NCBI RefSeq assembly: GCF_003207895.1
Contig: NZ_NKUB01000002.1
Location: 248,001-312,000 of the forward strand
Source of the DNA: Komagataeibacter swingsii
Lineage (GTDB): Bacteria; Pseudomonadota; Alphaproteobacteria; Acetobacterales; Acetobacteraceae
Direction: 5' to 3'
Length of the DNA: 64,000 nt
The notes under the pieces are model-generated. The model did not search any database, had not been told where the DNA came from, and saw nothing but the letters and a program-made list of their open reading frames with translations. This document shows, piece after piece, positions 8,246-25,644 of this stretch (position 1 is the stretch's first letter; every line of letters begins with the position of its first letter). Both the position numbers and the translations under genes were made by a program.

Positions 8246-8472
8246 GGGAAACAGGTACTCCAGCATAATCCGGGCAGGCCAGACGGGACATGGGATAAAG
8301 AGCGTGCCCGCGTCCGCCGTTGCAATGGTGGTTGATGATCTGACAAACGGGCCGGCCCCGATCACATCACCTATGGACATCCCTGACACATATACCAGTG
8401 CATGAACTACACAATCCGTGATGACGCTTCGGCGGCGCTGATCCGGGATGCATCCCCATCCGCGGCCAGGGT

Positions 8473-9059: not shown

Positions 9060-9629
9060 TTATCCCGCCTGCCCGACAATGGCGGCGGTAGAGCAGTGAT
9101 AGGCGGCGGAGGTCGTGCCAAAACACCAGATGATGTCGTTGCTGGCCTGCGGTCGATAGATCGGCATTTCACGATCCGCCGTATTGCATTCGCAATCCGA
9201 TGACGTGGTGCACGTGGTACGCCCGCAGCAGTCACGATAGGCGATGACATACGAACGCCCGTCATCGGGGTTACGGCAGGTTCCGATCCATGAGACCGGC
9301 GAAGGCTGCGTGCCCGGCGGGCAACTGTGTATCCCCCCGCCACAGCACCCGCACAGCACGCCATCAATGGCGCAGTGCCGCCAGTAATTGCATTTCGTGG
9401 GGTCGGATGACTGGGCGCGCCGTTCAAAATCGGACAATGTCGTGACGTCGGCGGGCCTGGGGGCGGCACTCCCGGCCGCGGCCCGGGCGCGCTGCACCGG
9501 CAGGAGCGGGAAGACACCACCGGCGACCATGGCCGTTCCCACCCGTCCCAGCACGCCACGGCGCGAGGATGAAGAAGCCAGCCTGCGGGTCAGGTGCTCC
9601 CCTATCTGCTCCAGAAATGATGGTTTCAT
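9060..9629 (-). CDS. mauA: TTQ amine dehydrogenase light chain, copy 2
   Basis: The 189-residue protein has a twin-arginine leader (SRRGVLGRVG, residues 22-31). The TTQ tryptophans align to W114 (VSW) and W168 (IIWCFG), with D89 and D133 as the maturation aspartates. The W-W spacing is 54 residues, three more than in copy 1, because of a longer cysteine-containing loop (CTTSSDCEC). AGGGGATC precedes the start by about eight bases. It lies 65 bases behind its heavy chain. It is closest to copy 3 (23886-24434), with which it shares the 54-residue spacing and the CGCCGGG motif, so copies 2 and 3 form a subtype distinct from copy 1. Confidence 0.9.
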   Translation of the reverse strand: MKPSFLEQIGEHLTRRLASSSSRRGVLGRVGTAMVAGGVFPLLPVQRARAAAGSAAPRPADVTTLSDFERRAQSSDPTKCNYWRHCAIDGVLCGCCGGGIHSCPPGTQPSPVSWIGTCRNPDDGRSYVIAYRDCCGRTTCTTSSDCECNTADREMPIYRPQASNDIIWCFGTTSAAYHCSTAAIVGQAG

Positions 9630-9694
9630 CCGATAGATCCCCTGAACTTTCTAGTCGCTTTTGGAACATTCAAACAAGGAAGGCAGGCCACCTG

Positions 9695-10858: not shown

Positions 10859-10963
10859 GATCTTACCTATCCTTCCACGACAACGAACAGGCAGCCGGGA
10901 AAGACAGACACATTCCACACTCTTCCATTACCCGCCCGTGCTGTACCTTCGTTAGGTCAAATA

Positions 10964-13408
10964 TCAGTATTCCGCCTTGATCGTGCCAAAGTATTCACGC
11001 ACCGCGCCACGTTCGACGGACTGCATGTCCCCACTTGCCGGGAAGCCGTTTTCACCCATCATGGCAATATACTTGGCGTTGAACAGGTTATAGACAGTAA
11101 AGCTGGCCGTGACATTATGCAGGAAGCCAACCTTGCCGAAATGGTAGCTCGCCCCCAGATTGGCCAGCCAGTATGCGGGCACATGGGTATCGTTCAGCAG
11201 CGAATACTGCCGTTTGGAATAGTAGTTGACGTCCAGGTAGGCGGAAGCCTTGCGCCAGGTATAGGACAGGTTCGCCTTATACATGACTGACGGATAGCCA
11301 TCCATCTTCTTGCCACGCAGGTTCTCGCAACCCGTTGTGGCAGACGTCAGGCAGATCGGCACATTGGCCGCATAGGCGAAATGGTTGTAGCTGACGGAGT
11401 TGGTGATCGCCAGCCCCTTGACCGGGGTAATGGTCAGGATCGCATCCATGCCCCACTGGCTGGCATGCTTCGAATTGATGAAGGAAGCAGACTGGTCGCC
11501 ACCACCGATGCCACTCGCGGCGGAAATCAGGCGGTTATAATTGTCGGAGTGGTATCCGTCGATCCCGGCCGTCAGCAGGCGGGACGAATAACGATAACCC
11601 AGCACATAGGTGAAATCGCGTTCCGGGGTCAGCGTTTTCTTCAACTGGTTGAACTGCGACTGCGTCTGGACCATCCACGGCCCCGGCTCGTTGGCGCTGG
11701 CATAGGGGGACGCGCTGTAGGGCCGCATGTTTTCGGCAAAGTCGAAGTACAGTTCATGCCCCGGCAGGAAACGCCAGTCCAGGTTCACCGCTGGCAGGAA
11801 GGCCGCGGCAGACGTCATTGACCCCGTGGGGCCGGGATTGTTCAGGCCGGAATAATTCCCCGTCGGGTCATATGCATAATCACCGCCCGCCGTGGTCTGC
11901 AGCACGGACTTGAAGCCATATGTGGCCGTAAAGTTGGGCAGGATGCGCCATGTATCCATGACGTGGTACTGGAATGTATTGGTGCTCCACCTGTACGCCC
12001 AACCGGTCGCGAAGGCCTGGCCATAGGTCGTGTAAGGCCCTGTCGTGCTCAGCGGCGCGCCATGGCCCAGCAACGGCTCGTTGAAGTAATCGGTCAACGC
12101 CGAGCTGGAGTTGTTTTCAAACCACGCACCCGTGTTGATGGTATGGTTGGCGATCTTGTATTCGAAGTAGGTATTGAACCCCTCGCGCATTTCGCGGTTC
12201 ATCCAGACCTGTTCGGACAGGGGGGCACCCGTTCCCGGAGATTCGGTACCCGGCGCGCTGTAGGTGGCGTTGGACAGATCGCGATGCGCATAAAGCGTTG
12301 TTTTCCAACGCAGGTTATTCGCAAGCTTCAGGTCGAAATTGATGCCGCCGATGTAGTCCTGCGTGGACTGGCCCGCATCATACAACTGGGTATAGTTACC
12401 GCTAACCAGCGAATTCCAGCCCGCAGGATAATTCCCCTCCGCATAGCTGTAGGCCTGCGCGTAGTTGGGGTACATCAGCTCCTGCCGCCAGCCGTATTTT
12501 GCCAGCGATCCCAGTGACTTATCCAGATAGCCGTAAACTTCGGCGTTGTTCCAGTTGAAGAACGCCGTCATCTTGCTGTCCTCGCCAATCGGCTGGACAA
12601 GCTTGGCGTTCACCTGCTGCATGAAATCGGGGCTGTCCGCGTCATACTTCTTTTCGAAATCACGCGAATAGGCCACGTAGAAACGGGTCCCGGTCTTGTT
12701 CAGCTTGCCACTGTCCACACGGACATAGGTGCGTTTCATCGCATAGCTGCCAAAGCCCTGGGATACGGTCGCCCCGGCCTTTTCCTTCGGGTCGGACGTG
12801 AAGAACTGCATCGTCCCACCAAGATTGGTGTTGGACGGCAGGTCAACAGCCCCGGCCCCCTGCGAGACGCTGACACGGCTGATATCATCGGATATCCACG
12901 CATTCGCGATATTCAGGCCGTTGGTCGAGGTATAGGTCTGGTCGTTAAGCGGAACGCCATCAAGCGTCACACCCAGCTGGTTCATGAAGAAACCGCGCAT
13001 GTAGACGCTGGCACCCCAGGTATCGATACCCAGCGGGTCGGTGGAGCTGTAGCTGACGCCGGGCAACTGGCCGACGGCCTTCAGCACGTTCTGCCCCGGA
13101 ACCTGCTGCGCCAGTTCCTTTCTGCCAATCACGTTTTCACTGTTGTGCGAAATGGCGCGGCGGGTATGGCTGACGGTCAGGACTTCCGGACGGCCTGCGG
13201 TCACGCGCGTATTGTTGGTGGATGTGCGCGCAACCTGCTTGGCCCCGCCCATGGACCCCCGGATCGGATGGTGGGCAGGCGTGACCGCGGTGGAATCCGT
13301 ATCGGACGTGGAATGCACGGACTGCGCCCGCGCATAGTGATCCCCGCCAAAAATCAGCGCCGATGATGTCAGGAGTAAAGATATGTACTTAGGTCTCAAC
13401 ATCCACAT
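10964..13408 (-). CDS. TonB-dependent outer-membrane receptor 1
   Basis: The 814-residue protein has an N-terminal signal (ending near YARAQS), a plug domain containing VSVSQGAGAVDLPSNTNLGG, then many beta-strand repeats and a C-terminal aromatic residue (AEY). The ATG at 13408 follows GGGAGAG by about nine bases. The C-terminal region is nearly the same as in receptor 3 at the right edge of the window (MGENGxPxSGD...ERGAVRxYFGTI), so the two are paralogues. It stands upstream of the second amine dehydrogenase on the same strand. The substrate is unknown; PQQ, a metal complex or an amine conjugate are possible. Confidence 0.88.
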   Translation of the reverse strand: MWMLRPKYISLLLTSSALIFGGDHYARAQSVHSTSDTDSTAVTPAHHPIRGSMGGAKQVARTSTNNTRVTAGRPEVLTVSHTRRAISHNSENVIGRKELAQQVPGQNVLKAVGQLPGVSYSSTDPLGIDTWGASVYMRGFFMNQLGVTLDGVPLNDQTYTSTNGLNIANAWISDDISRVSVSQGAGAVDLPSNTNLGGTMQFFTSDPKEKAGATVSQGFGSYAMKRTYVRVDSGKLNKTGTRFYVAYSRDFEKKYDADSPDFMQQVNAKLVQPIGEDSKMTAFFNWNNAEVYGYLDKSLGSLAKYGWRQELMYPNYAQAYSYAEGNYPAGWNSLVSGNYTQLYDAGQSTQDYIGGINFDLKLANNLRWKTTLYAHRDLSNATYSAPGTESPGTGAPLSEQVWMNREMREGFNTYFEYKIANHTINTGAWFENNSSSALTDYFNEPLLGHGAPLSTTGPYTTYGQAFATGWAYRWSTNTFQYHVMDTWRILPNFTATYGFKSVLQTTAGGDYAYDPTGNYSGLNNPGPTGSMTSAAAFLPAVNLDWRFLPGHELYFDFAENMRPYSASPYASANEPGPWMVQTQSQFNQLKKTLTPERDFTYVLGYRYSSRLLTAGIDGYHSDNYNRLISAASGIGGGDQSASFINSKHASQWGMDAILTITPVKGLAITNSVSYNHFAYAANVPICLTSATTGCENLRGKKMDGYPSVMYKANLSYTWRKASAYLDVNYYSKRQYSLLNDTHVPAYWLANLGASYHFGKVGFLHNVTASFTVYNLFNAKYIAMMGENGFPASGDMQSVERGAVREYFGTIKAEY

Positions 13409-13841
13409 CCGCTCGCTCTCCCACGCGTCCAAAACTCAGGTCTTGATCTAATGACCAATTCCTATTCGGAACGCGCTACGCTGCATAGGAGTAATCTTTC
13501 TTGTCCATTACAATTTCGAAAGCGCAGCGATACATGTGGCCGCGACGACACACCTGCCGTGGTCTTGCGACCATCATGGCCATACCGCGCATGTCAGTTC
13601 GGACAAAAAACGAAAATGGAACAAAAAATTATTTAAAATCAATACTATAATATGGAAATTCAAACAGGTAACAACAATCCGGGCGCACCCTGAATGCCTT
13701 TAATCATAGTCCCTTGCCTCACGCCGCGCGATGGACGCTGCCGATTGCATTTAGTGCCAAATAAGCAACATATCCCCGTCAAAAAAAATCATTGATGGCA
13801 GCGGACAATTGACTTCCCGATATCAATCTGCCCATCGCAGC

Positions 13842-14135: not shown

Positions 14136-14549
14136 TTACGCTGGCGCGCCTGGCAGCGGCAGTTCACCCGTTAGGAACTGTGCCCGGCCCAGGCCGAAGC
14201 TCCAGTGTTCATCCTGATTTTCAATAATGGAAACCATCAGGTCGGATGGCGCCAGGCCACAACGGGCCTGCAGTGTTTCCGCCAGCAGCTTGTAGAATGC
14301 GGCAATCTGTTCCTTGCCGCGCGGGCGGGAGACAACCTGCAACAGCACGACTTTGGGGGTGCGGGGAATATCCAGCCCGGTATCCTCGATCACCATATGG
14401 GTCGGCTCATGTTCGGATACCAGCTGGTAGCGATCACGCACCGGCACCTTGAAGGCTTCCAGCATGGCGTCATGCGCCGCATCCAGCAGGCCACGCAGTT
14501 CGGCGGGGTTCCGCTGGCCCTTCACAACGTGAAAATGCAATAAAGGCAT
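14136..14549 (-). CDS. Malonate semialdehyde decarboxylase (tautomerase superfamily)
   Basis: The 137-residue protein starts MPLL, so the proline becomes residue 1 after methionine removal, as in all catalytic tautomerase-fold enzymes. Compared from memory with MSAD of Pseudomonas pavonaceae, the catalytic set is present: Pro1, Asp (D39 from Met), the Arg pair in SRPR (R75, R77), and Trp/Phe of the HWSFG stretch (W116, F118), with a single one-residue shift. The Arg pair and Trp separate decarboxylases from plain tautomerases. The start at 14549 is required for Pro1 and has AAAGGAAA upstream. It lies 32 bases behind an omega-amino acid transaminase whose product could be malonate semialdehyde; the products would be acetaldehyde and CO2. 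Confidence 0.83.
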   Translation of the reverse strand: MPLLHFHVVKGQRNPAELRGLLDAAHDAMLEAFKVPVRDRYQLVSEHEPTHMVIEDTGLDIPRTPKVVLLQVVSRPRGKEQIAAFYKLLAETLQARCGLAPSDLMVSIIENQDEHWSFGLGRAQFLTGELPLPGAPA

Positions 14550-14581
14550 GGTATTTCCTTTTTTTATCTGAGACCTGTTAC

Positions 14582-15931
14582 TCAACCCACCTGGGTAATG
14601 AGCTTGCGTAGTGTCGAAACCATGTCACGCAGTTCCTGCGCGGTAGAGATGAACGGCGGTCCGAACGACACCGTATCACCAGTGCAGCGCAGCAGCAGCC
14701 CGTTACGCAGGCCCGCTTCAAACAGCGCCAGTCCACGCGCACCGGGCTTGCCTTCCACCGGCTTGAAGTCGATGCCCGCCGTCAGCCCGATATTTCGGAT
14801 ATCAGCGATGACATCCAGATCCTTCAGGCTGTGAACGGCATCCTCCAGCACGGGTTCAAGTTCACGCACGCGGGCAACCAGACCTTCCTCGCGCATGACA
14901 TCCAGCACCACATGCCCGACGGCTGCCGCCATGGGGTGACCGGAATAGGTGTAGCCATGACAGAACTCGATGGCATTTTCCGGGCCGGTCATGAACGTAT
15001 TGTAGATTTCGTCGGTAACGATCACGCCACCCATCGGCACGATGCCGTTGGTCACGGCCTTGGCGAAGGTGATGATATCCGGCGTCACGCCAAAACGCTG
15101 GGCGCCGAAATTTTCGCCCATGCGGCCAAATCCGGTAATGACTTCATCAAAAATCAGCAGGATGCCATTGGCCGTGCAGATTTCACGCAGGCGTTGCAGA
15201 TAGCCCACCGGCGGCACGATCACCCCTGTTGATCCCTGTACCGGCTCGACAATGACCGCCGCGATGGTGGACGCATCATGCAGGGCCACCAGCCGGACCA
15301 GATCTTCCGCCCGGTGCGTGCCCCATGTCGGCTGCCCGCGGGTAAAGGCCATGTGCCTGGGTTCATAGGTATGGCGCAGGTGATCGACGCCCGGCATCAT
15401 GCCCGCGGCGAACATCTTGCGATTGGACACGATGCCGCCGACCGACATGCCGCCAAAGCCCACGCCATGGTACCCACGTTCACGGCCGATCATGCGGAAG
15501 CGGTTGCCCGCCCCCTTGATCCGGTGATAGCCCAGCGCGACCTTCAGCGCCGTATCCACGGCCTCCGATCCGGAATTGGCGAAAAAGACATGGTTCATGC
15601 CCTGCGGCGCAAGATCGGCAATCCGTTCGGCCAGCGAAATGGCGCCGGGATGGGTCAACTGGAAGCAGGGCGCGAAATCCAGTGTCTCGGCCTGCTTGCG
15701 CACGGCTTCCACAATACGCGGATGGGCATGTCCCAGCGGGGTGCACCACAGGCCGGACAGGGTATCAAATACCTTGTTGCCTTCGCTGGTGGTGTAATAT
15801 GCCCCCTTGGCGCTGACCAGCGTACGGGGTTCCATATTGGCGCGCAACAGACGGTTGGCGGTAAAAGGCTGCCAGTAAACCCCTTCACGCTCATTTCGGA
15901 GAAGGTCCGCTTTTTCTGAATCCTGAGCCAT
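14582..15931 (-). CDS. Class III omega-amino acid:pyruvate aminotransferase (beta-alanine type)
   Basis: The 449-residue PLP enzyme resembles beta-alanine-pyruvate transaminases throughout. Landmarks are GLWCTPLGHAHP, FFANSGSEAVDTALK, the YHGVGFGGMSVGG stretch, VEPVQGSTG, FDEVITGFGRMG (PLP aspartate D262) and TFAKAVTNG (Schiff-base lysine K291). It transfers the amino group of beta-alanine or a similar omega-amine to pyruvate. Transcribed with the decarboxylase downstream and divergently from a MocR regulator, it forms a compact beta-alanine degradation unit. Other omega-amines (GABA, diaminopropane products) cannot be excluded. Confidence 0.87.
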   Translation of the reverse strand: MAQDSEKADLLRNEREGVYWQPFTANRLLRANMEPRTLVSAKGAYYTTSEGNKVFDTLSGLWCTPLGHAHPRIVEAVRKQAETLDFAPCFQLTHPGAISLAERIADLAPQGMNHVFFANSGSEAVDTALKVALGYHRIKGAGNRFRMIGRERGYHGVGFGGMSVGGIVSNRKMFAAGMMPGVDHLRHTYEPRHMAFTRGQPTWGTHRAEDLVRLVALHDASTIAAVIVEPVQGSTGVIVPPVGYLQRLREICTANGILLIFDEVITGFGRMGENFGAQRFGVTPDIITFAKAVTNGIVPMGGVIVTDEIYNTFMTGPENAIEFCHGYTYSGHPMAAAVGHVVLDVMREEGLVARVRELEPVLEDAVHSLKDLDVIADIRNIGLTAGIDFKPVEGKPGARGLALFEAGLRNGLLLRCTGDTVSFGPPFISTAQELRDMVSTLRKLITQVG

Positions 15932-16015
15932 GTTACAATCCTGTTACCGAAATACGTCCCCAATCCCTGGTGCGGAGACGATTCATTCCGTAAATGTAAA
16001 ACCCAGCCGACATCC

Positions 16016-16027
16016 TGTATATGTACA
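16016..16027. promoter_or_regulatory. Candidate MocR operator
   Basis: TGTA and TACA half-sites four bases apart lie in the divergent promoter region, 48 bases before the MocR start and 85 before the transaminase start. MocR-type regulators usually bind repeats in such intergenic regions; this placement is inference. Confidence 0.35.
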
Positions 16028-16074
16028 ATCAGCGCGCACGTCGTGATACTGTACTGATTGGAAACACATCCTCC

Positions 16075-17481
16075 ATGACATCCCCCGCCCCCTTTCCCAA
16101 TCCGGACCGACGCAGCCGCATGCCCCTGGTCGGCCAGATCGGGCAGGACATTGAAGAGCGCATCCGCAACGGCGTGCTGCGTCGGGGGGAACGCCTGCCC
16201 TCCATCCGGCGCATGGCGCGGCAATGCGGGGTCAGCACCATTACGGTCGCCAATACCTACCTGCGCCTGGCGGCCGCGGGACTGCTGGAAAGCCGGGGCA
16301 CACGGGGGTATTTCGTCACGGGACCGACACCGGAGACACCGCTGTTGCAGCGGTCGATTGATTCGATGTGGCTGCTCCAGCATGCGTATGAGGACGAGGC
16401 CCCGGTCATCAAGGCCGGATGCGGCTGGCTTCCGTCCGACATGCTGTTCACATCGGCCGCCCAGCGTGCGCTGGCGGGACTGTCCACCCAAAAGCTGGCA
16501 AGCATGCTGGAATACGGCAATCCCTACGGCCATGCCGGGCTGCGGCACAACATCCGCCAGATGCTGGCGCGTCGGGACATCGGGTGTGGGGAAAGCAGCA
16601 TCATCCTGACACATGGGGCAAGCCAGGCGCTGGAACTGGCTGTACGCTGCCTTTCGACACGGGGCGATACAATCCTGGTGGAAGATCCGGGTTACTGCAA
16701 CCTCTACCCGGCGCTACAGGCGCTGGGCTTGCAGATCGCCAGCATCCCCCGCCTGCGTGACGGCCCCTGCCCCGAACAGCTTGAACGCGTCGTGCGCCGG
16801 TACCAGCCGCGCCTGTTCATCACCACATCCATCCTGCATAATCCCACCGGCACATGCAGCACAACACAGAACATGCGCGATGTCCTGCGCATTGTCCGGC
16901 AGAATGATGTAACGGTGATCGAGGATGACATATTCCTTGACCTTGCCCCGAACGGGCAGCAGACGCTGTCACAACTGGGTGGCCTGAAAACGGTTATCCA
17001 TATCGGCAGTTTTTCCAAGACCATCGGGCCGGGACTGCGCGTGGGCTATGTGGCCTGCGACCCGGATACGGCACAGCGCATCCTGCGCCAGAAAATGGCC
17101 AGCAACCTGACCACAGCCCCCCTGAACGAGGAAATTGTCCATAATATCGTAAGCAGCGGACTGTACCATCCCCATCTGGCGCATCTGCGTGAAAGCCTGA
17201 CACGGGCGCAGGCGCGGGTCTGCACCCGCCTGGAACAGGTGGGCATGCACCTTTATTTCAATCCTGCAGGCGGCATGTTCGCATGGGCGCGGTTTCGGCA
17301 GGACATGGACGTGCGCGCCCTGGCGGAACGTGCGTGTTCATATGACATCATGCTTGCCCCCGGCCACCTGTTCCGCCCGGATGAACAGCCATCTCAATGG
17401 TTCCGGTTCAATGTGGCCCATGCGGATAATCCGCGTCTTTTCAATTTCCTCGAAGACAGCCACACGAGAGGTGGGCCATGA
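16075..17481 (+). CDS. MocR/PdxR-type regulator (GntR HTH fused to aminotransferase domain)
   Basis: The 468-residue protein has a GntR winged helix at about residues 15-80 (RLPSIRRMARQCGVSTITVANTYLRL). A fold-type I aminotransferase-like domain follows, with ILTHGASQALEL, VEDPGY, NPTG and the PLP lysine in GSFSKTIGPGLR near residue 315. Such proteins sense PLP adducts of an amine and control a neighbouring transaminase gene, as GabR does. The start at 16075 is chosen for its position before the HTH and GGAA upstream. It is transcribed away from the beta-alanine transaminase, its likely target. Confidence 0.88.
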   Translation: MTSPAPFPNPDRRSRMPLVGQIGQDIEERIRNGVLRRGERLPSIRRMARQCGVSTITVANTYLRLAAAGLLESRGTRGYFVTGPTPETPLLQRSIDSMWLLQHAYEDEAPVIKAGCGWLPSDMLFTSAAQRALAGLSTQKLASMLEYGNPYGHAGLRHNIRQMLARRDIGCGESSIILTHGASQALELAVRCLSTRGDTILVEDPGYCNLYPALQALGLQIASIPRLRDGPCPEQLERVVRRYQPRLFITTSILHNPTGTCSTTQNMRDVLRIVRQNDVTVIEDDIFLDLAPNGQQTLSQLGGLKTVIHIGSFSKTIGPGLRVGYVACDPDTAQRILRQKMASNLTTAPLNEEIVHNIVSSGLYHPHLAHLRESLTRAQARVCTRLEQVGMHLYFNPAGGMFAWARFRQDMDVRALAERACSYDIMLAPGHLFRPDEQPSQWFRFNVAHADNPRLFNFLEDSHTRGGP

Positions 17482-17729
17482 CCGTAGCGGGGTGGCATGC
17501 ATGCCCTGGCGCGTTCCCTGAGCTAAAGCGGGATATCCCTGCGGAGCAGGCCAGAGCCAGCGGTGCTGGCAATGAGGAACTCGTGGATAAATTCCGCAAG
17601 TCAATCAATAATAAAACGGACATGGATCTTGCGTCCCTGCCAATGGGCGACTTCCTGATGCAGGCAAAAGCCAGCAGGCCGGGTAAAATGCCAGACACAT
17701 TCAAAATATTCCGATATTTCAAACATTGA
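17478..17729 (+). CDS. Small hypothetical protein overlapping the MocR stop
   Basis: An 83-codon frame starts with an ATG that overlaps the MocR stop (ATGA) and ends just before a strong hairpin. The second half (from NEELVDKFRKS on) reads like a soluble protein, the first half less so. No family is recognised. Codon bias is weak and there is no obvious ribosome site, so it may be chance. Confidence 0.25.
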   Translation: MTVAGWHACPGAFPELKRDIPAEQARASGAGNEELVDKFRKSINNKTDMDLASLPMGDFLMQAKASRPGKMPDTFKIFRYFKH

Positions 17730-17736
17730 TCGCATT

Positions 17737-17780
17737 GCATTCATACATGCGGGACAGGCCCTGCCCGCATGTATGAATGC
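17737..17780. terminator. Long hairpin between convergent genes
   Basis: A perfect 17-base stem (GCATTCATACATGCGGG with its complement) extends inward by CAGG/CCTG with one bulged base. It lies between the MocR end and the convergent aldehyde dehydrogenase end and probably stops transcription from both sides, although neither flank has a long T-run. Confidence 0.7.
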
Positions 17781-17785
17781 TTTGG

Positions 17786-19240
17786 TCAGGATGCCGTCCA
17801 GTATCCAAGGATCGCCTTGATCTCCATGAAATCACGCAGTCCGTACACGCTGCATTCCCGCCCGTTGCCGGATTGCCCATATCCACCAAATGGCGCGGCG
17901 ACGGTCCAGGGGGCGCCATTGATATTCACATTACCGGCCCGCAGGTAGCGGGCGACATGCCGCGCATGGGACAGGTCGCCTGACTGGATGTATGCCGCAA
18001 GGCCATAAGGCGTGTCATTGGCGATCTGGATGGCGTGTTCTTCATTATCATAAGCCATTATGACCAGAACCGGGCCAAAGACTTCCTCCTGCGCGATGGC
18101 CATGCCGGACGTTACATGCCCGAATATGGTCGGGCGCACGTAATACCCGCATGTCAGGCCATCGGGACGGCCCGGGCCGCCACAGACCAGCGTGGCGCCT
18201 TCATCCATGCCCTTATGGATCAGCGTCTGGATACGATCGAACTGGAGATGGCTTACAACCGGCCCGAGATCGACCTCCGGGTCCATCGGGTCCCCCACGC
18301 GAATGGTGGCGGCCGTCCGACGGGCGATGTCCAGTGCTTCCTCCATCCGGGCGGCGGGTACAAGCATGCGGGTTGGCGCATCGCAGGACTGGCCCGAGTT
18401 GCTGAAACACTTACGCACACCCTGCGCCACGGCCTGTTCCAGATCGGCATCAGGCAGGATGATGTTGGGGGATTTCCCCCCCAGTTCCTGATGGACGCGC
18501 TTGACCGTATCCGCCGCCAGACGCGCCACCGCAGCACCTGCACGGGTAGACCCGGTGATGGACACCATATCGACCAGCGGGGAACGGGCCATGGCCTCCC
18601 CCACTTCGGGGCCGGTGCCGTTCAGCATGTTGTACACACCCGGCGGCAGGCCGGCCTCATCAAGGATTTCGGTAAACAGCAGGGCGCTGAGGGGGGCGAC
18701 TTCGCTGGGTTTGAGGATAATGGTGCAGCCCGCCGCAAGGGCCGGCGCGACCTTGCAGGCGATCTGGTTCATCGGCCAGTTCCACGGGGTAATCAGGCCG
18801 GTAACGCCGACCGCTTCATGGACGATCAGCATATCGTCGCGCCGTTCCTCGAACGGGAAGTCACGCAGCACCGTCACCATTTCTTCCAGATGCGCCATCC
18901 CCGCCCAGGCCTGGCTGTCATAGGCACGGGTCAGGGGACTGCCCATTTCCAGCGAAATGGCGCGGGCCATGTCCTTCATGCGCCTTTTGTAAATCTCCAC
19001 AATCCGTTCCAGCGCCGCCAGGCGCGTGGCGCGATCGGTCATGGACCATGCGGGGAAAGCCGCGCGGGCCGCCCTGATCGCACGTTCCGTATCCCGTGCA
19101 TTGCCCAGCGTGATCCGGGCGCAGGGCTGCTCGGTCGCGGGATTGATGACATCCATCTGCTCCCGTCCATCCGGCGTGATCCACTGCCCGTTGCAATACA
19201 TCTGGTGGGCGTACGGCGAAATCGCGCTGTCGCTTGTCAT
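17786..19240 (-). CDS. NAD(P)-dependent aldehyde dehydrogenase
   Basis: The 484-residue ALDH superfamily enzyme has all catalytic residues: N154 (TPWNWP), K177 (LKPSE), E252 (QELGGKSPN) and nucleophile C286 (NSGQSCDAP). The ADCD-type insertions of methylmalonate-semialdehyde dehydrogenases are absent, so a simple aldehyde is expected. It starts three bases after the end of the spermidine-dehydrogenase-like gene, so the two are co-transcribed. That neighbour would release an aminoaldehyde (3-aminopropanal or 4-aminobutanal), giving beta-alanine or GABA after oxidation. The substrate is inferred from context only. Confidence 0.85.
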   Translation of the reverse strand: MTSDSAISPYAHQMYCNGQWITPDGREQMDVINPATEQPCARITLGNARDTERAIRAARAAFPAWSMTDRATRLAALERIVEIYKRRMKDMARAISLEMGSPLTRAYDSQAWAGMAHLEEMVTVLRDFPFEERRDDMLIVHEAVGVTGLITPWNWPMNQIACKVAPALAAGCTIILKPSEVAPLSALLFTEILDEAGLPPGVYNMLNGTGPEVGEAMARSPLVDMVSITGSTRAGAAVARLAADTVKRVHQELGGKSPNIILPDADLEQAVAQGVRKCFSNSGQSCDAPTRMLVPAARMEEALDIARRTAATIRVGDPMDPEVDLGPVVSHLQFDRIQTLIHKGMDEGATLVCGGPGRPDGLTCGYYVRPTIFGHVTSGMAIAQEEVFGPVLVIMAYDNEEHAIQIANDTPYGLAAYIQSGDLSHARHVARYLRAGNVNINGAPWTVAAPFGGYGQSGNGRECSVYGLRDFMEIKAILGYWTAS

Positions 19241-19243
19241 GGC

Positions 19244-21235
19244 TTATATTTTTCCCTCTTTATGTGTATCGGCGGAATGGCCCGGAACGGTCGGGACGAA
19301 CGGATACTGGCCCGCATCCAGCAGTTCGGTCACGGCACGATGCGCCTCAAGGAAGGCGGCATCAGTGTGGGGACTGGCCGATGCATCCGAATTGGCGATG
19401 GCAATGCGCCCGAACAGTTGCCTGCCCACCACGCAGGGACGGGTATCCGTCTCGGTAAACACCCATTCGGCGGGGTCGTACAGGCTGTTATAGGTATAGG
19501 CATACCCATGCGGCCAGCGGTTGACGGTTATGGCGGCGATATCACGGGTGGCGTCAAATCCGCCCGCGCCCAGCACGCGCTGCAACTGGTTGCGGATTTC
19601 GTGTTCAAACGTCTCGAATGAAATGCCCAAAAGCATGCCGCGCGCGGCCCGGTACTGCTCCCGCTTTGACAGGCCCGGCACGCTGAATGTCTTGATCATG
19701 CGGATGACGATGGGGCGGTCCGGATCGGATGGCAGGGCAAGCCCGCCAAGGGCCATGGGTTCAGCGAGCGAGACCTCATCAAAATACATTCCCGGACAGC
19801 GGATTTCACTTACGCCCAGTTTTTCAAATGCCCGCCAGTTACGCAATGCCACATTCACGTAAACAATCGGTCCCTTGACCCCGTAGGCCAGCGCCTTCTT
19901 CTGCGTATCAGGCAGCGTCGGCACCAGATAGGGAATGAACATGTTCCAGCACGCCATGACCACCTGCCTGGCCTGCACCTGATGATACTGCGTGGGAGAG
20001 GCTTCCCCCGCCGGGGCATACAGGACCGATACGTGCTGCGCCTGATCCGGGGCGCCGTCATGGGCGACATTCATCACCATGCTGCCCAGCCGCAAGCGGA
20101 CGGCGGAGCCTGCGCGGTCCAGCGCGCCGTAATCGAACGTGGCCGTCGCCATGTCTTCCTGCGTGCGCCCCTTTGTTGCCGCGGGGATGAGGGAGGCAAC
20201 CAGCAGCCGGGCAAGGGTCGCATTGCCATCGGGGAAATGGACGCTATGCCCGCTTTCCTTCTGCCGCCCATGCTGGCCACCGGGCAGGTCGGCCAGAAGT
20301 CCTTCCGGCACGTCCCCCAGCCCCAGACCCGAAAATCCCGGCAGCCCCATTGTCCATGCGAACAGCGCGGGCAGCGTATCGGACCCGACGCAGAAGACGC
20401 CGCTGCCCGCCTTGCGAAAAAACCACAGGATGGACGGGTCCACCTTTGCCCATTTGCCAAGGTACTCCGGGTAGGAAATACCGGCGAGAAATTTCTTCTT
20501 TTCCGCAACCGAGCGACCATGCAGGTAATCCGGCTGCCGCGCTGAAAGCAGGCGCATGAGATCCGCGCGCGCCCTGTTGCTGAGCGGGGCATGTTGCAGG
20601 GCATGGGCATTGAGGCAGTTTTCCGTGCCGGCGGCGCTGCGCACCAGGGTATCGGCATGCCATGTTTCCTGATCGAAAAACAGGCCCGGTCCCATGCCAT
20701 GGCTGGAATAAAGGGACTCGTTGGCGGCATTTTCCTTCAGGTAGCGATCAAGGTCGACACCGATGTCGTCCAGGACCATCCGTGCCCACTGGTTGTAGCG
20801 TTCGGGGGATTCGACCTCCAGCGTACCGCCGTTGAGCACCATCCGGGCGCCATCGACACTGAATTCATTCCGCTTGGCATGCCCGCCAAAATCATCATGG
20901 TTGTCGATGATGAGGATCTTTTTGTCCGCTCCCGCATATTTGCGAAAGAAATGGGCCGCCGAAAGGCCGCTCAGCCCCCCGCCCACGATGACCAGGTCAT
21001 AGACCTCGCCAGTCCTGTGAATCCTGTGGGCCGGAACGGTCCCGTCACGCAGGGCGTGCGCTGCCTCGAACGCCCCGGGGTGGCTGCCGCGCATGCCGGT
21101 CCGCGCGGGCGGGTCCACGACGCCCGCCGCCTGCGCCCGCCCTTCCATCGTGCCGACCGCGGCACTGACCAGCACACCATTGATAAAATCACGACGCGTC
21201 ACCGCAGGCGTGGAAACCGTTGTTTTCCTTGACAT
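19244..21235 (-). CDS. Spermidine-dehydrogenase-like flavoprotein 1
   Basis: The 663-residue protein has a twin-arginine leader (TRRDFINGVLV, residues 13-23). An FAD Rossmann motif follows (GGGLSG, residues 85-90), then the DNHDDFGGHAKRNEF block typical of Pseudomonas SpdH-type enzymes. Its C-terminal block NRWPHGYAYTY...GRQLFGRIAIANSDA is shared with its divergent neighbour. Such enzymes oxidise spermidine in the periplasm to a diamine and an aminoaldehyde. The start at 21235 gives the Tat signal directly; a longer reading to 21391 overlaps the opposite promoter. It is followed after three bases by an aldehyde dehydrogenase. Confidence 0.78.
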   Translation of the reverse strand: MSRKTTVSTPAVTRRDFINGVLVSAAVGTMEGRAQAAGVVDPPARTGMRGSHPGAFEAAHALRDGTVPAHRIHRTGEVYDLVIVGGGLSGLSAAHFFRKYAGADKKILIIDNHDDFGGHAKRNEFSVDGARMVLNGGTLEVESPERYNQWARMVLDDIGVDLDRYLKENAANESLYSSHGMGPGLFFDQETWHADTLVRSAAGTENCLNAHALQHAPLSNRARADLMRLLSARQPDYLHGRSVAEKKKFLAGISYPEYLGKWAKVDPSILWFFRKAGSGVFCVGSDTLPALFAWTMGLPGFSGLGLGDVPEGLLADLPGGQHGRQKESGHSVHFPDGNATLARLLVASLIPAATKGRTQEDMATATFDYGALDRAGSAVRLRLGSMVMNVAHDGAPDQAQHVSVLYAPAGEASPTQYHQVQARQVVMACWNMFIPYLVPTLPDTQKKALAYGVKGPIVYVNVALRNWRAFEKLGVSEIRCPGMYFDEVSLAEPMALGGLALPSDPDRPIVIRMIKTFSVPGLSKREQYRAARGMLLGISFETFEHEIRNQLQRVLGAGGFDATRDIAAITVNRWPHGYAYTYNSLYDPAEWVFTETDTRPCVVGRQLFGRIAIANSDASASPHTDAAFLEAHRAVTELLDAGQYPFVPTVPGHSADTHKEGKI

Positions 21236-21439
21236 CTGGAACAGGACCCTTTGAAGCCAGAACGAAACAGTCCCGCAAAATAATCTTAATCCACAATCAT
21301 GACCATGCCTTTTCGTTCTGGAAAAAAAACGTTCTGTATCGGGTACGCAATCCGCAAATACAGGCGGTGCAATTCCTGTTTGTTCCGTCAACGAAACATG
21401 TTATGCGCATGGGACGCAAACCACACGCATGGACCCGGA

Positions 21440-23332
21440 ATGAGCGACAAATCTCCAGCCGATACCCCAAGGATAACGCGTCGCAACGTGATACAGGGCG
21501 TAATCCTGCCAATCATGGCGAACGCCATGCCATCCCCGGCCCAGGCAGCATCACCCGCTGCGGTTTCCCTGAACGAGACAGCCGCATCCTACCCACCGCT
21601 GCGCACCGGCCTGCGCGGGCAGTATCCCGGCTCTTTCGAAGTGGCCCACGCGGCGCGCGACGGACTGTTTGCCGGCCCGGTCACCGCAACCGACACGGGT
21701 GAACATTATGACCTGGTTGTCGTGGGGGCAGGCATATCCGGCCTGTCGGCGGCATTGTTCTACCAGCGCGCGATGGGACCGGATGCACGCATTCTGATCG
21801 TGGACAACCACGACGATTTTGGCGGCCATGCCAAACGGAACGCATTGCAGTACAAGGGCCAGACCTACCTGGGCTATGGCGGGACGATGAGCATCGAAAC
21901 CCCCTTCCCTTACAGCTTTACCGCAACAACCCTGCTGATGGACCTTGGCATCCGCCCGGACACCTATTCCAGCTACCTGAAGACCAGCCGCCTGAAGGGA
22001 CTGGAACCGGCTGTTTTTTATGATCGGGAAAATTTCGGCAAGGACCAGTTGGTGCCCGGCTATCATGAAAAAAACTGGGACAGGTTTTTTCGCGATTCAC
22101 CGCTGGATGATGAAACCCGGACCGATCTCTTGCGGCTGCATACGCAGGCCATCAATTATCTGCCTGACCTGACACCGGATGCCCGCCAGGCCCTGCTGCG
22201 CACGATCAGTTACGAAACATTCCTGCGACGTTACGCCCACATGTCGGACGGGGCCATCCGTTTCTTTGCCGGCAAGGCCTTTCGCAACAATATGCGCGTG
22301 GATACCTGCCCCGCCTATGATGCGATGAAGGCGGAGGCACCCGGCTTCAACGGGATGGAGGTCACGCATGACACACCGCATGAATCGGCCGTCTTCCACT
22401 TCCCCGACGGAAATGCCACGATTGCCCGCCTGCTGGTCGGGCGGTTGGTGCCATCATTTTTTGGCGCCCCGCAAACGGCGGCAAGCATTGTCATGGCGCA
22501 GGGAAATTATTCCCGGCTGGACCAGCCCGGTGCGGTACGGATCCGCCTGAACAGCATGGTCGTGCGCGTGGAACATACCGGCGACCCGATCAGGCCGAAT
22601 GATAACAAACCTGTAAGGGTGGTGTACCAGAAACCGGATGGCACATCCGACACGCGCCATGCGGTCATGGCTGACAATGTCATCATGGCATGCTTCAACA
22701 ATATCATTCCGTTTATTGTGCCCTCCCTGCCCGAATCACAAAAGGATGCATTGAAATACCCGTCCAAGGTTCCAATGCAATACAGCAGTGTCCTGCTGCG
22801 TAATGGACAGGCATTGCGCCGTTGCGGCACCCAGTCCATCTATGCGCCCTGTTCCTACCATACCCGCCTTCTGGTAGACGAACCGGTGGATATTGGCGGA
22901 TACACGACCAATCCCTCCCCTGATCGCCCGACCATGATCCACCTGCTGCGCAATGCAAATGCCCCTGGCCACCCGCGCAAGGAACAGAACAGGCTGGGGC
23001 GACAGGAAATGCTGGCCATGACTTTCCCCGAAATCGAGGCAAAGACCCGCGACCAGCTCCAGCGCATGTTCGGTCCCCTTGGTTTCAACCATGAACAGGA
23101 TATTGTCGGACTGACCGTAAACCGCTGGCCCCACGGCTATGCCTATACTTACGACACGCTGGGGGATCCATACATGCCCGCAGCCCTGCGCCCCCATGTT
23201 ATCGGACGGCAGCCTTACGGACGGATCGCCATTGCCAATGCGGATTCCACTGCCGCGGCCTTTACCAATACCGCAATAGATGCAGCCGAACGCGCGGTGC
23301 AGGAATGCCTTATCAGTCGTGGATATACCTGA
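21440..23332 (+). CDS. Spermidine-dehydrogenase-like flavoprotein 2
   Basis: The 630-residue paralogue of the divergent gene has a twin-arginine leader (ITRRNVIQGVIL), GAGISG at residues 96-101, DNHDDFGGHAKRNAL, and the same C-terminal NRWPHGYAYTY...GRIAIANADS block. It differs from copy 1 in the middle third, which suggests a different substrate or cleavage site. The two starts are about 200 bases apart and share a promoter region. No downstream partner gene follows; a MITE-like repeat begins 45 bases after the stop. Confidence 0.78.
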   Translation: MSDKSPADTPRITRRNVIQGVILPIMANAMPSPAQAASPAAVSLNETAASYPPLRTGLRGQYPGSFEVAHAARDGLFAGPVTATDTGEHYDLVVVGAGISGLSAALFYQRAMGPDARILIVDNHDDFGGHAKRNALQYKGQTYLGYGGTMSIETPFPYSFTATTLLMDLGIRPDTYSSYLKTSRLKGLEPAVFYDRENFGKDQLVPGYHEKNWDRFFRDSPLDDETRTDLLRLHTQAINYLPDLTPDARQALLRTISYETFLRRYAHMSDGAIRFFAGKAFRNNMRVDTCPAYDAMKAEAPGFNGMEVTHDTPHESAVFHFPDGNATIARLLVGRLVPSFFGAPQTAASIVMAQGNYSRLDQPGAVRIRLNSMVVRVEHTGDPIRPNDNKPVRVVYQKPDGTSDTRHAVMADNVIMACFNNIIPFIVPSLPESQKDALKYPSKVPMQYSSVLLRNGQALRRCGTQSIYAPCSYHTRLLVDEPVDIGGYTTNPSPDRPTMIHLLRNANAPGHPRKEQNRLGRQEMLAMTFPEIEAKTRDQLQRMFGPLGFNHEQDIVGLTVNRWPHGYAYTYDTLGDPYMPAALRPHVIGRQPYGRIAIANADSTAAAFTNTAIDAAERAVQECLISRGYT

Positions 23333-23885: not shown

Positions 23886-24434
23886 TTATTCCGCCTGCCC
23901 GACCAGTGCCGCTGTTGAACAGTGGTACACTGCGGAGGATCCCCCGAAACACCAGATGATGTCATTATTGGCTTGGGGGCGGTAAACCGGCAGTTCCCTG
24001 TCTTCCGTATTGCAATGGCAATCCGGCGACGAATTACACAATGTCCGCCCGCAGCAATCCCGATAGGCAATGACGTAAGACCGGTTATCGACAGGGTTAC
24101 GGCAGGTGCCTATCCACGACACGGGCGAAGGCTGCGTGCCGGGCGGGCAGGTATGCACACCACCGCCACAGCACCCGCACAGCACTCCGTCAATGGCGCA
24201 ATGCCGCCAGTAATCGCATTTTGTCGGGTCGGTGGACTGGGCGCGGCGGTCAAAATCCGAAACCGCAGCCGGTTGCGCCTGCGCCGCCTGCGCGCGCTGA
24301 ACGGGCAGGAGCGGCAGGGAAGACGTCACCACGGCAGCGCTTCCCGCCTTGGCGATCATGCTGCGACGGGAAATGCCCTGTGCCATTTTCCGCGTCAGCT
24401 TTTCGCCCAGCCTGTCAAAAAAGGATTCAGTCAT
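23886..24434 (-). CDS. mauA: TTQ amine dehydrogenase light chain, copy 3
   Basis: The 182-residue protein has a twin-arginine leader (ISRRSMIAKAG). TTQ tryptophans align to W107 (VSW) and W161 (IIWCFG), with D82 and D126 as the maturation aspartates, at a W-W spacing of 54 as in copy 2. The ATG at 24434 is preferred over a TTG at 24455. It lies 52 bases behind its heavy chain. Unlike copies 1 and 2, no cytochrome gene follows, only broken sequence and a repeat, so its electron acceptor must come from elsewhere. Confidence 0.9.
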   Translation of the reverse strand: MTESFFDRLGEKLTRKMAQGISRRSMIAKAGSAAVVTSSLPLLPVQRAQAAQAQPAAVSDFDRRAQSTDPTKCDYWRHCAIDGVLCGCCGGGVHTCPPGTQPSPVSWIGTCRNPVDNRSYVIAYRDCCGRTLCNSSPDCHCNTEDRELPVYRPQANNDIIWCFGGSSAVYHCSTAALVGQAE

Positions 24435-24486
24435 GACCAGTATTTTCCAAACCAAGGGGGACAGTATGAATTAAACGGGAATTGCC

Positions 24487-25644
24487 TTACGGCGGCGTGA
24501 CGGTCATGGCGCCTGCGTCAATATGGGTATTGCGCAGGGTCTTCCCGCTCTGCAGGTCGATGACCATCAGGTTTCCGTTTTCCCCGTTGGCATACAGCAA
24601 TGGTTTCTCGTCCTGACTGACCGCCACCACCTTGGCAGGCGCCGGCAGGTCGATGCGGCGTACCAGGCGATGGGCCTGCGTATCGAGTTCCCACACCTCG
24701 GTGCCTGCCGTCTTGTGGGTCCAGTACGTGCCTGTATGCATCAGGGCGAACAGGTGGTGGTTGTAATAGGACATGGCAAACGGCTGCGTGCCGCCCGGAC
24801 GCCATGCCAGTTCCTGCACCCCGGTCCCGGCAGCGGGCTGGCCCGCCGCCTGCTGGATTGACCATGCCGGTTCGATAACCGGCTGCGGCCCCAGATGCGC
24901 CTTCATGACCTTGCCGCTATAGGTAATGAAATAGGCATCGCCCTTCGCGCGTTCCGCCAGGCTCTGTTCATAAACCGGGTCGCCATCCGCGCTGAAAAAC
25001 GGTTTGGAATGGGTAACGCTGGCCTTGCCGTCCGTGCCCACCGCCACATTGGTCAATGACCCATCGCCACACAGGCTGGAAAATCCACCGCTCTGCCATG
25101 GAAAGACCAGCGCACAACCGGGAATATCCACCGTGCGGACTACCCTGAACGCGGACAGGTCGACAACAGTCACCGCGGATGCGGGGCTGAGGTCGAATAT
25201 GAACCCGAGCTTCCCGTTGGCATCGACATCGAAATTCTGCTGCTTGCGCCCCACCAGCGCGCGCGGCGGCAACGCCAGTTCGCGCACGCGTTCCAGCGTG
25301 CGGGCATCGAACTGCTGCAACATGTCATGCCGGTCGCCATGGTCGACAAGCGACCATGACGTCTCGGTTACATAAATGGTCCGCCGGTCAGGCGTGATGA
25401 CATTGTTGGCCAGCGGCGTTGCGGGAATCGTGCCCAGGACATGACCGTTATCCCCATCATAAATGGTGATCGCCGTTGTCCTGGTATAGGGAAAGACCCA
25501 GTGCGCCCCCATTGCCGGAAGCTGCGCTACATCGCTCTGTTCCGCCTGCAGGGCAGGCGACGGTTCGGCAGCCTGCGCCACGGCGGGAGCGGAAACCACG
25601 ACAGATGCGACCATGGCCGATACATGCCGAAACCAACCTGTCAT
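24487..25644 (-). CDS. mauB: Amine dehydrogenase heavy chain, copy 3
   Basis: This 385-residue beta-propeller protein has a signal peptide ending near AQAAEP. It shares with copy 2 the blocks FDLSPASAVTVVDL, VRTVDIPGCALVFPW, LCGDGSLTNVAV, QPAAGTG and LMHTGTYWTHK. A strong ribosome site (TGGAGG) lies six to seven bases before the ATG. It forms a two-gene unit with light chain 3. The substrate is not predictable from sequence; methylamine, aromatic amines, histamine and diamines are all oxidised by members of this family or its relatives. Confidence 0.88.
   Translation of the reverse strand: MTGWFRHVSAMVASVVVSAPAVAQAAEPSPALQAEQSDVAQLPAMGAHWVFPYTRTTAITIYDGDNGHVLGTIPATPLANNVITPDRRTIYVTETSWSLVDHGDRHDMLQQFDARTLERVRELALPPRALVGRKQQNFDVDANGKLGFIFDLSPASAVTVVDLSAFRVVRTVDIPGCALVFPWQSGGFSSLCGDGSLTNVAVGTDGKASVTHSKPFFSADGDPVYEQSLAERAKGDAYFITYSGKVMKAHLGPQPVIEPAWSIQQAAGQPAAGTGVQELAWRPGGTQPFAMSYYNHHLFALMHTGTYWTHKTAGTEVWELDTQAHRLVRRIDLPAPAKVVAVSQDEKPLLYANGENGNLMVIDLQSGKTLRNTHIDAGAMTVTPP

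What the first reader, a model, noticed from the sequence alone, without database searches (positions are those of the whole stretch)
14136..23332. Polyamine to acetaldehyde route built on a malonate semialdehyde decarboxylase
The gene at 14136-14549 carries Pro1, Asp, the Arg pair and the Trp/Phe of malonate semialdehyde decarboxylase, an enzyme known to me mainly from chloroacrylate degradation. Here it sits behind an omega-amino acid:pyruvate transaminase under a MocR regulator, next to an aldehyde dehydrogenase and two spermidine-dehydrogenase-like genes. The set fits spermidine -> 3-aminopropanal -> beta-alanine -> malonate semialdehyde -> acetaldehyde, which acetic acid bacteria can oxidise. 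I do not know a described pathway that uses this decarboxylase for beta-alanine.
Basis: partly seen in the sequence, partly recalled or inferred. Interest (0 to 1): 0.85.

Follow-up and report, generated by a model that had tools for sequence, protein, structure and literature searches.

The report
Beta-alanine breakdown ending in acetaldehyde
In this vinegar bacterium, an enzyme known mainly from pesticide breakdown appears to be the last step in using up beta-alanine, turning it into acetaldehyde; relatives carry the same enzyme gene among genes for breaking down pyrimidines and inositol, which suggests a natural everyday role for it.

Summary
Observation confirmed; core interpretation strengthened. 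The window (Komagataeibacter-type acetic acid bacterium) encodes a close malonate semialdehyde decarboxylase (MSAD) homologue: 56% identical to the P. pavonaceae enzyme, all eight published active-site residues present. It lies 32 bp behind a beta-alanine:pyruvate-type transaminase (TA), divergent from a MocR regulator. In the genus, all 9 TA genes found in 19 genomes sit directly before an MSAD. In three genomes the MocR|TA-MSAD cassette lies inside a reductive pyrimidine (uracil to beta-alanine) gene set. The six other TA genomes have that pathway elsewhere and/or the spermidine-dehydrogenase/quinoprotein island seen here; the ten TA-less genomes have neither, though five hold a distant SpdH homologue. 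MSAD relatives also sit in myo-inositol clusters: of 73 iolD places, 6 have MSAD within 10 kb, 14 have IolA/MmsA, none both, 53 neither. No MmsA was found in the window's genome. So beta-alanine -> malonate semialdehyde -> acetaldehyde is well supported by genomics; the polyamine source is plausible but unproven, and published SpdH chemistry makes spermidine -> 3-aminopropanal indirect. Nothing has been assayed. I found no paper joining MSAD with beta-alanine in the open-access library. New variant of a known pathway.

The parts
14136..14549 (-). malonate semialdehyde decarboxylase homologue (MSAD), 137 aa
   Evidence: phmmer to 2aag/2aaj/3mjz; PF14552 over cut-off; 55.8% identity to P. pavonaceae MSAD; eight active-site residues; the only PF14552 match in the genome
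14582..15931 (-). beta-alanine/omega-amino acid:pyruvate transaminase (AptA/BauA type), directly upstream of MSAD (32-bp gap)
   Evidence: NF052567 646 bits over cut-off 500; 4b98 E 1.6e-134; gap
16021..17481 (+). MocR-type (GntR + aminotransferase fold) regulator, divergent from TA-MSAD
   Evidence: PF00392 and PF00155; divergent MocR|TA-MSAD order recurs
17786..19240 (-). aldehyde dehydrogenase, candidate 3-aminopropanal/aminoaldehyde dehydrogenase; not MMSDH by score
   Evidence: PF00171; MMSDH model 240 bits vs cut-off 448.5; best PDB hit 6x9l; 69% homologue in the amine-type locus L035, none listed in the pyrimidine loci L093, L095, L096
19244..21235 (-). spermidine-dehydrogenase-like flavoprotein A, twin-arginine-like signal; ORF listed to 21391 by first-start rule
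   Evidence: 42% identity to B; the ALDH begins 3 bp after its stop; start by eye
21440..23332 (+). spermidine-dehydrogenase-like flavoprotein B, twin-arginine-like signal; ORF listed from 21299
   Evidence: SpdH 7d9i E 5.1e-116; start by eye
23886..24455 (-). TTQ amine dehydrogenase light chain b
   Evidence: PF02975 over cut-off; TIGR02659 192.2 bits, just under its cut-off 196.85
24487..25644 (-). TTQ amine dehydrogenase heavy chain b
   Evidence: PF06433 over cut-off; TIGR02658 152.1 vs cut-off 454.45
9060..9629 (-). TTQ amine dehydrogenase light chain a
   Evidence: TIGR02659 198.7 bits, over cut-off 196.85
9695..10918 (-). TTQ amine dehydrogenase heavy chain a
   Evidence: TIGR02658 152.1 bits, under cut-off 454.45
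10964..13432 (-). TonB-dependent receptor
   Evidence: PF00593, PF07715 over cut-offs
8473..9045 (-). small haem-c type protein, possible electron acceptor (CGGCH read by eye; no Pfam match)
   Evidence: sequence; no family
6956..8389 (-). FAD oxidase (AmaA/PuuB-like) that recurs near TA-MSAD in relatives
   Evidence: NF050086 299.8 bits, below cut-off 600; homologue within 8 kb of MSAD in L035, L052, L053, L055; DAO-family gene after MSAD in L075

Best explanation
TA and MSAD form a two-gene catabolic end module. TA moves the amino group of beta-alanine to pyruvate, giving L-alanine and malonate semialdehyde; MSAD decarboxylates malonate semialdehyde, without CoA or NAD, to acetaldehyde and CO2, which an acetic acid bacterium can oxidise further. 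This replaces the usual (methyl)malonate semialdehyde dehydrogenase step (MmsA/IolA/BauC), which yields acetyl-CoA. MocR controls the module. In this genome beta-alanine most likely comes from polyamines or 1,3-diaminopropane, oxidised in the periplasm by two SpdH-like flavoproteins and TTQ amine dehydrogenases and then by the adjacent ALDH; in sister species it comes from uracil. Shown here: gene identities, active-site residues, gene order, co-occurrence. Inferred: both activities, the flux, the regulator's role, protein location, the amine source. My confidence is about 0.85 for the TA-MSAD chemistry and about 0.55 for the polyamine source; the figure below is for the whole.
For: MSAD identity and complete active site. 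TA over the AptA cut-off. Genus: TA (E 1e-150 or better) in 9 of 19 genomes, each directly before an MSAD. Three genomes (G942 = K. melaceti, G946 = K. rhaeticus, G941) carry RutR-like-MocR|TA-MSAD-PreT-PreA-beta-ureidopropionase-like, with a dihydropyrimidinase about 5 kb (G942) or 15 kb (G941, G946) away; in two others (G940, G945) RutR-like and PreT are direct divergent neighbours and TA-MSAD is on another contig, so the cassette behaves as a unit. PreA in 6 of 19 genomes, all TA-positive; SpdH B orthologue (91% identity or more) in 4 of 19 and TTQ light chains in the same 4, all TA-positive; 9 of 9 TA genomes have PreA or that SpdH, 0 of 10 TA-negative genomes do (Fisher p 1.1e-5, not corrected for ancestry). 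G022: MSAD between a beta-ureidopropionase-like and a RutR-like gene, with PreT, PreA and dihydropyrimidinase. iolD: MmsA within 10 kb at 14 of 73 places, close MSAD at 6, both at 0, neither at 53. MmsA not found in G000. In the tree the label 'TA neighbour' needs at least 5 gains or losses, also when the TA and TA+pyrimidine rows are pooled; TA-linked MSADs lie in separate clades, one outside the family (L075). Published beta-alanine operon with MSA dehydrogenase, for comparison: PMC4907197 (passages).
Against: No enzyme of this locus has been assayed. 35 of 64 tree rows have no recognised malonate semialdehyde source nearby (this includes the P. pavonaceae reference and three distant rows; labels are mine, from the tblastn survey). 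One type-A MSAD (K. xylinus L058) and the 80% homologue in Acetobacter okinawensis (L062, L063) lack TA. 8 of 17 family genomes with a close MSAD also have MmsA, so MSAD is not a general genome-wide replacement. 53 of 73 iolD places have neither enzyme within 10 kb, partly perhaps because contigs are short. Of 50 TA homologues in the family sample only the 3 most similar are next to MSAD and 2 others are next to MmsA. SpdH presence is not specific: 5 of 10 TA-negative genomes have a 38-39% SpdH homologue. 5 of 9 TA genomes have no SpdH match at all at E 1e-60. The absence of MmsA rests on a search that scored 7 of 10 first-look candidates.
Confidence: 0.72

Rival explanations
1. TA and MSAD work on beta-alanine, but in this genome it comes from something other than polyamines (uptake, pantothenate or peptide turnover, another amine); the SpdH/TTQ island is a separate amine-oxidation system that happens to sit beside the module.
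For: The module exists without SpdH in 5 of the 9 TA-bearing genus genomes; Acetobacter L060 and L061 have a nitrilase-family hydrolase and an amino acid permease between MocR and TA instead; published SpdH splits spermidine to diaminopropane and 4-aminobutyraldehyde (PMC9397018 passages).
Against: The SpdH B orthologue and TTQ light chains occur in the same 4 of 19 genomes, all with TA-MSAD; G192/L035 has a diverged cluster of TTQ, TonB receptor, MocR, TA, MSAD, ALDH and FAD oxidase, without SpdH.
Confidence: 0.35
2. The pair also, or mainly, handles beta-aminoisobutyrate from thymine: methylmalonate semialdehyde is decarboxylated to propionaldehyde.
For: The cassette lies in reductive pyrimidine gene sets in three relatives, which also degrade thymine (general knowledge).
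Against: The window has no tblastn match (E 1e-5) to PreT, PreA, the beta-ureidopropionase-like, RutR-like or dihydropyrimidinase proteins of L032 and its genome no PreA; iol clusters yield malonate, not methylmalonate, semialdehyde (general knowledge; genes).
Confidence: 0.15
3. The protein is a tautomerase or hydratase without physiological decarboxylase activity and protects against a reactive aldehyde or enol by-product.
For: Same superfamily; hydratase activity of MSAD is reported (passage and reference titles seen).
Against: Arg73/Arg75, Asp37 and the hydrophobic wall match the decarboxylase; repeated placement at malonate-semialdehyde-producing steps and, near iolD, never together with MmsA.
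Confidence: 0.08
4. The MSAD gene serves the degradation of a 3-carbon halo-acid or another xenobiotic, as in P. pavonaceae.
For: Sequence family only.
Against: Of ten window proteins scanned, Pfam named no tautomerase other than MSAD, and PF14552 matches once in the genome; the recurring partners are TA, pyrimidine and iol genes. Dehalogenases were not searched for as such.
Confidence: 0.02

Closest known systems
Beta-alanine pathway with omega-transaminase and malonate semialdehyde dehydrogenase (Pseudomonas sp. AAC KES23458/KES23460; aptA-mmsA1 in Cupriavidus necator)
   Same: A class-III transaminase of this kind makes malonate semialdehyde from beta-alanine and is encoded next to the enzyme that consumes it (PMC4907197 and PMC6572756, passages).
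   Different: There malonate semialdehyde goes to acetyl-CoA by an NAD/CoA-dependent dehydrogenase; here that dehydrogenase was not found in the genome and a decarboxylase stands in its place.
Malonate semialdehyde decarboxylase of Pseudomonas pavonaceae and coryneform FG41 (1,3-dichloropropene pathway)
   Same: 55.8% identity and identical active-site set to the P. pavonaceae enzyme.
   Different: Context is amine, pyrimidine or inositol catabolism, not haloacrylate degradation.
P. aeruginosa spermidine dehydrogenase pathway (SpdH, KauB, beta-alanine to acetyl-CoA)
   Same: SpdH homologues and an ALDH next to the beta-alanine module (PMC9397018 passages).
   Different: End step by MSAD; two SpdH paralogues plus TTQ dehydrogenases; no MmsA found.
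myo-Inositol iol operon with IolA
   Same: The iol cluster of a relative has IolC/J, D, E and B over cut-offs (L033), which together make malonate semialdehyde (general knowledge; PMC6856214 passages).
   Different: A close MSAD and no IolA/MmsA lies within 10 kb of iolD at 6 of 73 places.

Membership tests
MSAD subgroup of the tautomerase superfamily | N-terminal Pro1 and Asp37 | tested here: met
   site table with the window included; alignment with 2aag
MSAD subgroup of the tautomerase superfamily | Arg73/Arg75 pair and hydrophobic wall Trp114, Phe116, Phe123, Leu128 | tested here: met
   residues from PMC10606566 passages
MSAD subgroup of the tautomerase superfamily | decarboxylation of malonate semialdehyde to acetaldehyde | not testable with these tools
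   needs assay
Beta-alanine/omega-amino acid:pyruvate transaminase (AptA/BauA) | class-III aminotransferase fold and equivalog score over cut-off | tested here: met
   PF00202, NF052567 646 vs 500 bits
Beta-alanine/omega-amino acid:pyruvate transaminase (AptA/BauA) | conserved Lys of the active site and carboxylate-binding Arg (roles recalled) | tested here: met
   aligned with 4b98 (fAKavtng; lllRctgdt vs fyvRfggdt)
Beta-alanine/omega-amino acid:pyruvate transaminase (AptA/BauA) | activity on beta-alanine | not testable with these tools
   needs assay
Classical beta-alanine pathway ending in MmsA/BauC | (methyl)malonate semialdehyde dehydrogenase present | tested here: not met
   TIGR01722 not found in G000 at E 1e-100 (7 of 10 first-look candidates scored; found in 81 of 200 family genomes)
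Spermidine dehydrogenase SpdH | full-length similarity to solved SpdH | tested here: met
   7d9i E 5.1e-116 over residues 59-669 for gene B; gene A only by 42% identity to B
Spermidine dehydrogenase SpdH | haem b binding and polyamine cleavage | not tested
   no structure comparison or assay made
Methylamine dehydrogenase (TTQ) | light- and heavy-chain equivalog scores over cut-off | tested here: inconclusive
   light chain a 198.7 and b 192.2 vs cut-off 196.85; heavy chains 152.1 vs 454.45: TTQ-type, probably not methylamine dehydrogenase itself

The most novel reading that the evidence does not exclude
MSAD is a natural, general, CoA-free sink for malonate semialdehyde in acetic acid bacteria and some others, taking the place of MmsA/IolA in parallel operons for beta-alanine (from pyrimidines or polyamines), myo-inositol and perhaps 3-hydroxypropionate. 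The MocR|TA-MSAD cassette moves as a unit between a pyrimidine locus and an amine-oxidation locus. The xenobiotic-degrading MSAD of P. pavonaceae would then have been recruited from such a role.
Probability: 0.6. Interest if true: 0.75.

Novelty: new variant of a known kind. Interest (0 to 1): 0.64.

Why it matters
MSAD has been described mainly in the breakdown of a man-made fumigant; what such enzymes do in nature is largely open (my reading of the passages). These gene sets give a concrete, testable natural role. They also predict a route from uracil, inositol or polyamines to acetaldehyde, without acetyl-CoA, in bacteria that oxidise aldehydes for energy. The same small protein could serve as a CoA-independent malonate semialdehyde outlet in engineering.

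Tried and rejected
I considered MSAD as a simple genome-level substitute for MmsA: rejected, 8 of 17 close-MSAD family genomes hold both. I considered carnosine or histamine as source because hut-like genes lie at 31126-57843 (by eye): not followed. I considered the window ALDH as acetaldehyde dehydrogenase: its homologue (69%) is in the amine-type locus L035 and none was listed in the three pyrimidine-linked loci, so aminoaldehyde dehydrogenase is likelier, but this is inference. For the MSADs in other contexts I scanned up to four neighbours from each of 15 chosen loci (not all such loci): FMO-like and GCV_T/DUF1989 genes in Hyphomicrobium L065, an amidase in Gluconacetobacter liquefaciens, a flavohaemoprotein-like gene (under its cut-off) in Gluconobacter, LysR genes, a GGDEF/EAL protein, an HpcH/HpaI-family gene and others, with no theme common to all. 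No structure prediction was made: solved homologues suffice.

Literature: no paper held both 'malonate semialdehyde decarboxylase' and 'beta-alanine' (0 papers); 'malonic semialdehyde decarboxylase' gave 0; 10 papers hold the enzyme name (listing), of which I saw passages of three (PMC10606566, PMC5818174, PMC11641302). Searches with the substrate name plus acetaldehyde and inositol (5 papers) or uracil (4 papers) were seen as listings; passages of one, PMC6856214, give IolA as the route. Searches were listings; I saw passages of PMC4907197 and PMC6572756, passages of PMC9397018. All limited to the open-access library.


Full report
What is there. It matches the crystallised Pseudomonas pavonaceae malonate semialdehyde decarboxylase at E 8.7e-43 and the FG41 enzyme at E 1.1e-26, with 55.8% identity over 129 residues to the former. 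The eight positions reported as important in the P. pavonaceae enzyme (passages of PMC10606566) are all identical in the window and in 63 of 72 aligned rows in all; the 9 exceptions are among the more distant ones, 33-55% identical to the window. It is the only PF14552 match in the genome. The gene follows the transaminase by 32 bp. The transaminase scores 646 bits against the NCBIfam omega-aminotransferase AptA model (cut-off 500), and its three best solved relatives are beta-alanine/omega-amino acid:pyruvate transaminases. The MocR regulator is divergent. The ALDH is generic and not an MmsA-type enzyme by score. The SpdH-like gene 21299-23332 matches solved SpdH; its divergent neighbour is 42% identical to it. 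Both have twin-arginine-like signals by eye, which would place them in the periplasm.

The module in the genus. The genome-contig scan returned 23 loci, among them eight named Komagataeibacter records. In whole genomes, MSAD (E 1e-20) occurs in 11 of 19 genomes of the genus and TA (E 1e-150) in 9 of 19; each of the 9 TA genes lies directly upstream of an MSAD, less than 60 bp away by the coordinates of the two calls. One further type-A MSAD (G950, K. xylinus K2G30) has no TA. Outside the family MSAD is rare: matches at E 1e-20 in 5 of 385 genomes of the class and 15 of 398 of the phylum, both counts including family members.

A second source of beta-alanine points to the substrate. In K. melaceti (G942), K. 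rhaeticus (G946) and G941 the order is RutR-like, MocR, then TA, MSAD, PreT, PreA, beta-ureidopropionase-like; a dihydropyrimidinase lies about 5 kb away in G942 and about 15 kb away in the other two. The family evidence: PreA (NF006183) is over cut-off in L093 and L032, dihydropyrimidinase (TIGR02033) and the hydantoinase/carbamoylase-family amidase (TIGR01879) are over cut-off in L032; the RutR-like gene is under its cut-off, and PreT and 'beta-ureidopropionase' are named from position and general knowledge. Together such genes turn uracil into beta-alanine (general knowledge), and TA-MSAD stands where beta-alanine would be used. In G940 and G945 RutR-like and PreT are neighbours without the cassette, and TA-MSAD lies on another contig, so the cassette behaves as a movable unit. 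PreA is found in 6 of 19 genomes, all with TA. A close SpdH B orthologue is found in 4 of 19, all with TA, and TTQ light chains are found in the same four. Every TA-positive genome (9 of 9) has at least one of these two sources, G939 both, and none of the 10 TA-negative genomes has either (Fisher p 1.1e-5; shared ancestry not corrected). Against this, five TA-negative genomes have a 38-39% SpdH homologue. The window itself shows no match to the pyrimidine or iol reference proteins.

Other pathways that make malonate semialdehyde. In the family sample MSAD matched 31 of 200 genomes at E 1e-5; I used the 18 places in 17 genomes with 53-100% identity (one a fragment) as close MSADs and left the weaker ones out of the distance count. 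In L033 the MSAD lies behind IolC/J, IolD, IolE and IolB, all over their cut-offs. iolD was found at 73 places in 66 of 200 genomes and MmsA/IolA (TIGR01722) in 81 of 200. MmsA is within 10 kb of iolD at 14 places, a close MSAD at 6, both at none, neither at 53. Four Komagataeibacter genomes have a second MSAD near IolD; for one of them IolD and IolE were scanned and are over cut-off, with an SSADH-like ALDH and an HpaI-like aldolase. In L101 and L103, two of three third-type copies, MSAD lies directly behind a gene that is choline-dehydrogenase-like (scanned for L103 only); hpdH of C. necator, a 3-hydroxypropionate dehydrogenase gene next to mmsA2, was annotated choline dehydrogenase (PMC6572756 passages). 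That fourth case is only a lead.

Phylogeny. A tree of 64 MSAD rows (nine duplicate rows removed, fragments left out, P. pavonaceae and the window included) puts the window in a 15-row clade (support 100/99): 8 TA, 3 TA + pyrimidine, 1 pyrimidine, 3 other. A second clade (97/89) holds 11 iol-context rows, two TA-linked ones (L034, L035) and two others. A genome outside the family (G479, L075; its genus-mate G708 groups with Methylobacterium) has MocR|TA-MSAD too. At least five gains or losses of a TA neighbour are forced by well-supported branches, also with all TA rows pooled. Repeated joining of TA to different MSADs is what a shared metabolite predicts. 35 of 64 rows have no recognised source nearby, and several long branches make deep placement unsure.

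Mechanism. Shown: gene identity, active-site letters, order, co-occurrence. Inferred: TA makes malonate semialdehyde and alanine from beta-alanine and pyruvate; MSAD decarboxylates it to acetaldehyde; acetaldehyde is oxidised by the cell's usual enzymes. The amine part is less certain. The review PMC9397018 (passages) gives SpdH products from spermidine as 1,3-diaminopropane and 4-aminobutyraldehyde, and from spermine as spermidine and 3-aminopropanal. So here spermine, or spermidine through diaminopropane and a second amine oxidation (TTQ dehydrogenases or FAD oxidase), could yield 3-aminopropanal, which the adjacent ALDH could make into beta-alanine. L035, a diverged cluster of TTQ, TonB receptor, MocR, TA, MSAD, ALDH and FAD oxidase without SpdH, suggests that primary-amine oxidation may be the more constant partner.

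What is known. The published partner of such a transaminase is a malonate semialdehyde dehydrogenase forming acetyl-CoA (PMC4907197 passages; aptA-mmsA1 in PMC6572756 passages); in this family sample two TA homologues (G140, G143) also lie beside MmsA. No MmsA was found in the window's genome, with 7 of 10 first-look candidates scored. In the open-access library I found no paper that joins MSAD with beta-alanine; for inositol and uracil I searched only the substrate name plus acetaldehyde. Subscription papers were not searchable, so priority is not established. Verdict: real, well supported as a variant end of beta-alanine catabolism, known enzymes in a combination I did not find described.

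Noticed in passing
window 19-2655, 9060-10918, 23886-25644: Three TTQ-type amine dehydrogenase light chains in one window, one with MauE/MauD-like neighbours (read by eye); in the genus the light chain occurs in 4 of 19 genomes, three copies each.
   Followed up: partly
L060:6190-8438 and L061: In Acetobacter the MocR and TA-MSAD genes enclose a nitrilase-family hydrolase and an amino acid permease, perhaps for a beta-alanine amide or carbamoyl compound (speculation).
   Followed up: no
L101:3696-5826, L103:8237-10304: Third-type Komagataeibacter MSAD copies directly behind a choline-dehydrogenase-like GMC gene, possibly a 3-hydroxypropionate dehydrogenase.
   Followed up: partly
L065:5055-10775, L067:5052-10784: Hyphomicrobium MSAD homologues (65-66%); in L065 the gene follows an FMO-like monooxygenase and a DUF1989/GCV_T fusion gene, and L067 has genes of the same sizes in the same order; role unclear.
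   Followed up: no
L097:9851-18958, L099, L100: IolD/IolE cluster with an SSADH-like ALDH, HpaI-like aldolase and 2-hydroxyacid-dehydrogenase-like gene (the last by eye) beside a second MSAD: a possible variant inositol-type pathway.
   Followed up: partly
L033:9907-10695, L038:10165-10995, L040, L042: A hydroxypyruvate-isomerase-like TIM barrel gene often follows MSAD in iol clusters.
   Followed up: no
window 31126-57843: Large histidine-utilisation-like region (histidine ammonia-lyase, urocanase, imidazolonepropionase and amidohydrolase genes by eye).
   Followed up: no
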